In this document: positions 35,546 through 37,355 of the stretch, one piece after another | Position numbering within the stretch: the stretch's first letter is position 1 | Layout: each line of letters begins with the position of its first letter | Source of the DNA: Sphingomonadales bacterium | GTDB taxonomy: Bacteria; Pseudomonadota; Alphaproteobacteria; Sphingomonadales; Sphingomonadaceae | Direction of reading: 5' to 3' | Length of the DNA stretch: 50,662 bases | Assembly: GCA_013297725.1 (NCBI GenBank) | Contig: JAAFIB010000012.1 | Coordinates: 1 to 50,662, forward strand | Notes under the pieces: model-generated | Seen by the model: only the letters and a program-made list of their open reading frames with translations | The model's database searches: none | What the model was told of the DNA's origin: nothing | Program-made: the position numbers and the translations under genes

Positions 35546-36790
35546 ATGATGCTATGGGAACCAACCAGAGAGGCGGCGCTTGCTCGGCTTGCGGAATTTG
35601 TGCCGCGTGCGGGCCGTGCCTATGCCGGGACACGCAATGTTGATCGCGGGCCGCTAGACCGGTCGAACGTATCAGCGCTGTCGCCCTATATCCGGCGGCG
35701 GATGATCACCGAGGAAGAGGTCGTTCGAGCGGTGCTTCAAAAGCACAGCTTTGCTGCGGCGGAGAAATTTGTCCAAGAAGTTGCATGGCGCACCTATTGG
35801 AAGGGCTGGCTGGAAATGCGGCCCGATATGCTTGTGCGCTTTGATACAGAGCGGAAGGCGTTGAAGGCAGCATTGGCCGATGACAGCAACCTAAACCGGC
35901 GCTGGCAAAAAGCGATTGAGGGCCGCACAGGCATTGATTGCTTTGATGCTTGGGTCGGCGAACTGGTAACGTATGGCTGGCTGCACAACCATGCGCGTAT
36001 GTGGTTTGCCAGCATCTGGATTTTTACGCTCGGCCTGCCATGGCAATTGGGCGCGGATTTTTTCTACAAACATTTGCTGGATGCGGATCCTGCATCGAAC
36101 ACGTTCTCGTGGCGCTGGGTTGCTGGGCTGCATACGCGCGGGAAGCATTATGTGGCGCGGGCGGAAAATATCGACCGCAATACACAGGGCCGCTTTGCGC
36201 CATATGGCCTGTTGAATGAAACGGCAGAGCCACTGCCAGAGGATGCACCGCCGCCACTGGCAGTGAAGCCCCGCTATGATCCACCACAGTTGGATGGGCG
36301 GGTTGCGTTGTTGCTGACCGAGGAAGATTTGCATCCTGAAAGCCTTGGGATCAACGCCGAGATTGCCGGTATTGCTGTCCTGCCCAGTGCAACGGTAAGC
36401 GCGTCCGAAAGTCCAGCTGCATCCTTTTCCAAGGCCGCACTGCAGGATGCGGCCCAGCGTGCCGCTGCGCATTTCAATGCACCGGCTGAGATTGTCGATC
36501 CTGCACAGCTGGCTGCGTGGGCCAAGGCGCTGGGCGTGCGGCAATTGGTGACAGGTGCTGTTCCGGTTGGCCAGATTGCATGGCAATTGCGCGACTTGCC
36601 ACCCGCTCTGGCCGAGCAAGGCGTTGCGCTTGTGCAGCTGCAACGCGACTGGGACCGAAAGCTATGGCCGCTTGCCACCGCGGGCTTTTTCAAACTGAAA
36701 ACGAAGCTTCCCGGTATCGCGATGGAATATGCGAGCGATCAACCTAGCCCTCAATCGCAACAAATTTCCCTGCCGCTCGGTCTTTCTTGA
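35546..36790 (+). CDS. Photolyase/cryptochrome-related protein with domains in reversed order
   Basis: This is a 414-residue protein. Residues 1-225 match the FAD-binding helical half of photolyases. The blocks seen are SALSPYIRRRMITEEEVV, FVQEVAWRTYWKGWLE, GRTGIDCFDAWVGELVTYGW with LHNHARMWFASIW, and LGADFFYKHLLDADPASNTF with SWRWVAGLHTRGK. In known photolyases this half is C-terminal. Residues 250-395 form an alpha/beta region in the order expected for the photolyase antenna domain (RVALLLTEEDLHPES; IAGIAVLP; a helix; VRQLVTGAVP; ALVQLQRDWD; ATAGFFKLKTKLPGI). So the protein looks circularly permuted. DNA repair or photosensing is inferred. Its 3' end overlaps the opposite-strand asparaginase gene by 47 bp. 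Confidence 0.8.
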   Translation: MMLWEPTREAALARLAEFVPRAGRAYAGTRNVDRGPLDRSNVSALSPYIRRRMITEEEVVRAVLQKHSFAAAEKFVQEVAWRTYWKGWLEMRPDMLVRFDTERKALKAALADDSNLNRRWQKAIEGRTGIDCFDAWVGELVTYGWLHNHARMWFASIWIFTLGLPWQLGADFFYKHLLDADPASNTFSWRWVAGLHTRGKHYVARAENIDRNTQGRFAPYGLLNETAEPLPEDAPPPLAVKPRYDPPQLDGRVALLLTEEDLHPESLGINAEIAGIAVLPSATVSASESPAASFSKAALQDAAQRAAAHFNAPAEIVDPAQLAAWAKALGVRQLVTGAVPVGQIAWQLRDLPPALAEQGVALVQLQRDWDRKLWPLATAGFFKLKTKLPGIAMEYASDQPSPQSQQISLPLGLS

Positions 36791-37244
36791 CCTTTAGCCC
36801 GTCAAACACCTGCCCGCTCATCGCGATATAGACGCCCGGTTGTGCAACTTGCGCAGTTGCAAACGCCATGCCCAGATTAAACTGCGCATCAGTTTCGGCA
36901 AAGCGCGCTGGCGACAGGGCGCCGGTCAGCACAATGGTTTTGCCGGGAACAGCCGCCGCCAGAACCTGTGCGGTTTCGGCCATGGTGTCGGTACCGTGGG
37001 TGATAACAATACGATCCTCTGGTGCTTCGCGTGCTGAGCTGGCGATCAAAGCGCGATCAGCATCGGTTAGCTCCAGACTGTCTTTGCGCATCACCTCAAC
37101 CAGCCGGTATGGCAAAGCTACCCGTGCCTCGGTCAGCAACGCAGGAATGCCACTATCGACGATCTGATACTCCGATAATGCATCAAAGTAATTCTTGTCG
37201 ATCGTGCCGCCGGTGGTGAGGATAAGGATTGCGCTTTGCGTCAT
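36744..37244 (-). CDS. Single-domain asparaginase-like protein
   Basis: This protein has 166 residues from ATG 37244; ATG 37256 is also possible. It holds only the N-terminal catalytic domain of L-asparaginase type I/II: ILILTTGGTIDKNY (nucleophile Thr in GGTID), a mid-protein acidic residue stretch (RKDSLELTDADR), IVITHGTDTMAETAQVLAAA (Thr-Asp pair) and KTIVLTGALSPARF (catalytic Lys region is altered to a GAL-SPARFAE loop). The C-terminal domain found in the 320-residue enzymes is missing, and no relic of it is seen. Short proteins like this exist as a separate subfamily, and their activity is uncertain. Confidence 0.85.
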   Translation of the reverse strand: MTQSAILILTTGGTIDKNYFDALSEYQIVDSGIPALLTEARVALPYRLVEVMRKDSLELTDADRALIASSAREAPEDRIVITHGTDTMAETAQVLAAAVPGKTIVLTGALSPARFAETDAQFNLGMAFATAQVAQPGVYIAMSGQVFDGLKVKKDRAAGKFVAIEG

Positions 37245-37355
37245 GCACTGGCGCATAGCGCAAGCAGATAGGTAGGGAAAGCCAGCGATACTTGCCTCAC
37301 CCCATGATACCGCTAAAGCTAGGCTGCAAGATCATTTCACTATCAGGAGAAAGCG

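What the first reader, a model, noticed from the sequence alone, without database searches (positions are those of the whole stretch)
35546..36790. Apparent circularly permuted photolyase/cryptochrome
The FAD-binding helical half of photolyase is at residues 1-225, and an alpha/beta region with the strand-helix order of the antenna domain follows at 250-395. All photolyases and cryptochromes I know have the opposite order. If right, this is a distinct architecture with both domains retained; the ASN-x-FSWRW region around FAD also carries an unusual GLHTRGK loop. I know of no description of it.
Basis: partly seen in the sequence, partly recalled or inferred. Interest (0 to 1): 0.75.

Follow-up and report, generated by a model that had tools for sequence, protein, structure and literature searches.

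The report
Known reversed-order photolyase (NewPHL class)
The gene encodes a light-driven DNA-repair enzyme whose two halves stand in the reverse of the usual order; the order is real, but this class of photolyase (NewPHL) was already described in 2020, so the protein is an ordinary member of a known group.

Summary
Window 35546-36790 is an intact 414-aa ORF: FAD domain of photolyase first (PF03441, E 7e-23), alpha/beta domain at 251-397 second (AlphaFold2 mean pLDDT 93.5). The order recurs in 32 of 99 related genomes and in the 80 genome-contig loci kept.

The novelty claim fails. [quoted passage not shown] 2020; paper not held, seen through passages of citing papers). The only FAD-first hit in a genome I identify as Dinoroseobacter shibae, source of a characterised NewPHL, is 46% identical and in the same 99/98-supported clade. 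Absent Fe-S cysteines and a Trp pair fit too.

'Circular permutation' is partly supported. A sister group encoding the halves as adjacent genes links the C-terminal domain (p 7e-4 to 1e-5) to antenna domains (p 1e-7 to 6e-8); the direct match is weak and 3D placement untested.

Likely function, inferred: light-dependent CPD repair in single-stranded DNA.

The parts
35546..36790 (+). NewPHL-type photolyase gene, 414 aa (ATG at 35546 or 35549)
35546..36229 (+). FAD-binding catalytic domain, residues 1-228
   Evidence: Pfam PF03441, profile match of residues 4-202 to conventional FAD domains, 39 of 228 columns identical in 81 rows
36230..36295 (+). variable linker, residues 229-250
   Evidence: 0 of 22 columns at 90% identity; no strand or helix in the model
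36296..36736 (+). C-terminal alpha/beta domain (Z-domain), residues 251-397, antenna-like fold
   Evidence: AlphaFold2 models, Foldseek, profile comparisons

Best explanation
The gene encodes a NewPHL-class photolyase. The N-terminal helical domain binds FAD and takes a UV-damaged pyrimidine pair into the FAD pocket; blue light excites the reduced FAD, which donates an electron that splits the cyclobutane dimer, most likely in single-stranded DNA. The C-terminal alpha/beta domain packs on the FAD domain as a cap; it is a relocated, probably chromophore-free descendant of the antenna domain. Shown here: domain order, predicted fold of each domain, conservation of the FAD and lesion-pocket residues, membership of the NewPHL clade, indirect antenna homology. 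Inferred, from published NewPHL work and general photolyase chemistry: CPD repair, preference for single-stranded DNA, capping role. Lack of a second chromophore is a guess.
For: FAD domain by Pfam and profiles. In 81 of 81 aligned proteins Y26, E78, W81, N148, D179, D181, N185, W166 and W189 are identical; their E. coli equivalents (Y222, E274, W277, N341, D372, D374, N378, W359, W382) are recalled numbering. No conserved third Trp: 23 of 81 rows have any W in residues 98-125, the approximate place, which fits the 'mere Trp dyad' reported for D. shibae NewPHL (PMC8948257, passages). No Fe-S cysteine set: one Cys in the window protein; rows have 0-5 Cys in the FAD half and only one column has Cys in 20 or more of 81 rows. 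D. shibae orthologue: 183 of 402 aligned positions identical, the only FAD-first protein among 3 hits in that genome; the other 2 carry an N-terminal antenna motif. Clade support 99/98 for 29 FAD-first rows. NewPHL described as having an inverted domain topology and repairing CPDs in single-stranded DNA (PMC13274461, passages; PMC9426592, passages and section 5).
Against: No activity, chromophore or DNA-binding data for this protein. The founding paper could not be read. The link from the D. shibae ORF to UniProt A8LJA9 is by elimination, and the genome was identified by a plasmid match, not by a name. Capping of the FAD site was not tested: no model coordinates were available. No solved structure covers the C-terminal half: the best sequence match in the PDB is 58 bits over residues 3-195.
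Confidence: 0.93

Rival explanations
1. It is a Phr4/Phr5 or Phr6-type reversed photolyase (predicted Fe-S (6-4) photolyase of picocyanobacteria) rather than NewPHL.
For: Same reversed order (PMC9426592); sister group in the tree, the two together on one side of a 100/100 branch.
Against: Separate groups, 95/97 for the 8 split-gene proteins and 99/98 for the 29 fused ones; the Fe-S cysteines are absent. No Phr6 sequence itself was available for the tree.
Confidence: 0.03
2. The C-terminal domain is not a moved antenna domain but an unrelated Rossmann-like domain of the USP / nucleotidyltransferase kind, fused independently.
For: Foldseek of the domain ranks USP and PPAT entries among photolyases, none at E <= 0.001. 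Direct profile match to antenna domains is weak: with the 36-row antenna profile as query the score is 23.9 against a best of 23.6 in 60 shuffles. Against the C-domain profile, 8 single antenna sequences score 9.5-18.0, no better than 10 unrelated window proteins (9.9-18.4), and 7 of 8 single Phr5-like sequences score only 12.1-20.7, one 24.5.
Against: In the 50 Foldseek rows shown, photolyases and cryptochromes have the highest query TM-scores (up to 0.55; best other, 0.48). Profile to profile, the Phr5-like ORFs match antenna domains over 131 columns (p 6e-8, 1.4e-7) and the C-domain over 129 columns (p 1.1e-5 with the Phr5-like profile as query, score 37.8 against at most 18.2 in 60 column shuffles and 15.8 reversed; 6.6e-4, score 28.1, the other way). 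The Phr5-like profile scores 21.2-41.3 with 8 single antenna sequences and at most 17.3 with the 10 controls. Column shuffles do not keep the strand-helix pattern, so they are a mild control.
Confidence: 0.2
3. It is a cryptochrome-like light sensor rather than a repair enzyme.
For: Some superfamily members have lost repair (general knowledge); the genome has a second, conventional photolyase.
Against: E78, W81, N148 and N185 are identical in 81 of 81 rows; the D. shibae and M. mesophilicum members are reported as CPD photolyases acting on single-stranded DNA (PMC9426592).
Confidence: 0.05

Closest known systems
NewPHL, also called SPL in one paper (Emmerich et al. 2020, NAR 48:12845; members D. 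shibae A8LJA9, M. mesophilicum M7YZC8, Erythrobacter litoralis Q2N8F4, Rhodospirillum centenum B6IPR5 as listed in PMC13274461)
   Same: N-terminal FAD domain, C-terminal short alpha/beta domain, Trp pair, no Fe-S cysteines, length close to the D. shibae orthologue (405 aa), same clade
   Different: Nothing found that sets the window protein apart; activity not tested here
Phr4/Phr5 and Phr6 of marine Synechococcus and Cyanobium (PMC9426592)
   Same: FAD half before antenna-like half
   Different: Phr4/5 are two genes; Phr4 and Phr6 are reported to carry four Fe-S cysteines, absent here; the split-gene relatives found here form a sister group
Conventional CPD photolyases (solved: 1iqr, 1dnp, 4u63)
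   Same: FAD domain core, 26-41% identity to those of related genomes
   Different: Antenna domain at the N-terminus; the C-terminal helices that follow the WxW motif there have no counterpart here

Membership tests
NewPHL | N-terminal FAD domain of the photolyase superfamily | tested here: met
   (81 of 81 members)
NewPHL | C-terminal short alpha/beta (Z) domain | tested here: met
   models; shared with the D. shibae orthologue. The published description of the Z-domain itself could not be read
NewPHL | One clade with a characterised member (D. shibae) | tested here: met
   46% identity; clade 99/98; genome G420 identified as D. shibae by an exact plasmid match at the record's own coordinates
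NewPHL | Trp dyad, no conserved third Trp | tested here: met
   W166 and W189 identical in 81 of 81; W in residues 98-125 in 23 of 81
NewPHL | No Fe-S cluster cysteines | tested here: met
NewPHL | Light-dependent CPD repair in single-stranded DNA | not testable with these tools
   needs an assay
NewPHL | C-terminal domain seals the FAD site (recalled from the 2020 abstract) | not testable with these tools
Phr4/Phr5/Phr6 | Four Fe-S cysteines | tested here: not met
   one Cys in the whole protein
Class I CPD photolyase | Antenna domain N-terminal to the FAD domain | tested here: not met
   the FAD domain match starts at residue 4

The most novel reading that the evidence does not exclude
The Z-domain of NewPHL is a true descendant of the photolyase antenna domain, and the reversed order arose once, in the common stem of NewPHL and the two-gene Phr4/Phr5 pairs. 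The two-gene stage, found here in alphaproteobacteria as overlapping or adjacent ORFs, would be the route by which antenna and FAD domains changed places. NewPHL would then be a derived rearrangement, not a simplified ancestor. The tree is not rooted, so the direction is a conjecture.
Probability: 0.4. Interest if true: 0.4.

Novelty: already known. Interest (0 to 1): 0.17.

Why it matters
The reversed domain order is worth knowing for anyone annotating photolyases: Pfam marks only the FAD half, and six of the eight best plasmid matches are annotated only as 'FAD-binding domain-containing protein'. The remaining open point is the origin of the C-terminal domain; the split-gene relatives make it testable.

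Tried and rejected
Direct profile comparison of the C-terminal domain with a first set of 19 antenna domains was not significant (p 0.03 and 0.008). With 20 antenna domains picked by a strict motif it gave p 0.0015 and 0.0004, with 36 of 39 p 0.0025 and 0.004. The link was made through the split-gene relatives instead.

A viral contig scan with the family found 5 pattern matches and no relative. PHROGs gave one family of unknown function, on the FAD half only (E 3.8e-30, residues 3-202), and one chance-level row.

The idea that the family is undescribed was rejected. A first literature search for 'circular permutation' with 'photolyase' listed 11 papers; by title and abstract start none concerned such a photolyase. 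The terms used in print are 'inverted domain topology' and 'reverse domain order'.

Foldseek of the whole model matches photolyases (best 1iqr, E 6e-6, TM 0.41), but the rows do not say which residues aligned, so they do not show where the C-terminal domain sits.

Full report
What is there. The ORF at 35546-36790 is intact and encodes 414 residues. Only PF03441, the FAD domain of photolyase, is recognised in it by Pfam, at residues 75-203. Against 19 conventional photolyases of related genomes residues 4-202 align with the FAD half at 34% identity, E 2.1e-30. AlphaFold2 with 81 family sequences gives a confident model (mean pLDDT 93.5, pTM 0.91): helices to residue 212, a loop region, then an alpha/beta domain with five strands from 252 to 365 and closing helices to 397. 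The C-terminal domain alone, with 71 sequences, gives a confident model with the same order of strands and helices (pLDDT 95.4).

How common it is. Of 99 related genomes including the window's own, 32 hold a homologue that covers both halves, 27 of them among the 45 genomes of the window's genus; this counts one genome where the gene lies in pieces on two contigs. In an even sample of 289 alphaproteobacterial genomes, 21 hold a homologue of this type, counted from the matches at E 5.3e-71 or better. In four of these 21 the match itself covers only the FAD half; three of the four were fetched, and their frames continue through a C-terminal part, the fourth was not looked at. The 80 ORFs are 383-437 residues long with the starts that I chose. 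The window genome also has one conventional photolyase.

What it is. Photolyases with the FAD domain first were described as NewPHL by Emmerich et al. in 2020. That paper is not held; I recalled its abstract and saw how others cite it. [quoted passage not shown] shibae, M. mesophilicum, E. litoralis and R. centenum. PMC9426592 (section 5 and passages) describes Prochlorococcus Phr7 as FAD domain plus C-terminal Z-domain, and Phr4/Phr5 and Phr6 as reversed photolyases with Fe-S cysteines. PMC8948257 (passages) calls D. shibae NewPHL a photolyase with a mere Trp dyad. PMC12083526 (passage) names NewPHL among subfamilies with a conserved Asn near FAD. PMC9498864 and PMC9178010 (passages) mention short photolyase-like proteins (SPL) after Xu et al. 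2021, which is not held.

Membership. One genome contains the D. shibae plasmid pDSHI01 stretch at the record's own coordinates (G420, 6 contigs, 4.4 Mb). It has three photolyase hits: one FAD-first protein of 405 aa, 46% identical to the window protein over 402 aligned positions, and two with the antenna motif first. A tree of 56 FAD domains puts the window protein and the D. shibae protein in one group with the other FAD-first proteins sampled (29 rows, 99/98). The Fe-S cysteines are absent, and two of the three Trp of the usual chain are invariant while the third is not conserved. The five NewPHL features that could be tested are met.

Is it a permutation? The C-terminal domain is far less conserved than the FAD half (14 of 147 columns at 90% identity against 96 of 228). 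Compared directly with antenna domains it gives weak profile scores (p 0.0025 and 0.004 with 36 of 39 antenna domains; score 23.9 against at most 23.6 in 60 shuffles), in matching order. Foldseek of the domain finds photolyases, USP and PPAT folds, none significant, photolyases with the best query TM-scores in the 50 rows shown. Eight of the 289 alphaproteobacterial genomes carry a sister protein that ends 19-36 residues after the FAD match, and in 8 of 8 a second ORF of 131-155 aa starts between 20 bases before and 14 bases after its end. As a profile these second ORFs match antenna domains (p 6e-8 and 1.4e-7 over 131 columns) and the C-terminal domain here (p 1.1e-5, or 6.6e-4 with query and target exchanged, over 129 columns); the score 37.8 compares with at most 18.2 in 60 shuffles and 15.8 reversed.

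Results that go the other way. Single sequences do not show it: against the C-domain profile, 8 single antenna sequences score 9.5-18.0 and 7 of 8 single second ORFs 12.1-20.7 (one 24.5), while 10 unrelated window proteins score 9.9-18.4. Pfam sees PF00875 in only 2 of 6 second ORFs, below the cut-off, and not in the C-terminal domain of the window protein. I take the homology as likely, not proven. Whether the domain docks where the antenna domain does was not tested, and the tree has no inferred root, so the direction of change is open.

How it works. By analogy with the NewPHL class: reduced FAD, excited by blue light, passes an electron to a cyclobutane dimer held in the FAD pocket. The pocket residues checked are invariant in 81 of 81 proteins. 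Activity on single-stranded DNA and the capping role of the C-terminal domain are inferred from the literature.

Verdict. A correct observation of a real architecture that was published in 2020. Interest is low; the possible origin of the C-terminal domain through a two-gene stage is the only point for which I saw no statement in print, in seven searches of the held library and without the founding paper at hand.

Noticed in passing
L169, L176-L182 (8 of 289 alphaproteobacterial genomes): Two-gene reversed photolyases like cyanobacterial Phr4/Phr5: FAD-domain ORF followed by an overlapping or adjacent antenna-like ORF of 131-155 aa. Three of the eight (L169, L178, L182) carry four cysteines spaced like those reported for Phr4; five do not, whereas the published picocyanobacterial Phr4 are all said to carry them.
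   Followed up: partly
H1-H8: Copies of the gene on large plasmid records of Niveispirillum, Ruegeria, Novosphingobium, Peteryoungia and Asticcacaulis; six of eight are annotated only as FAD-binding domain-containing protein, the other two not at all.
   Followed up: no
window 36744-37256 (-): A 170-aa ORF that reads like an asparaginase, shorter than usual (family name from reading, not from a search), converges on the photolyase gene and overlaps its last 47 bases.
   Followed up: no
G420 C2 and C4, G612, G549, G732, G537, G554, G456: A 4-kb stretch of D. shibae plasmid pDSHI01 occurs at 99-100% identity in six other genomes of different genera of the same family, and twice in G420, which fits recent plasmid transfer.
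   Followed up: no
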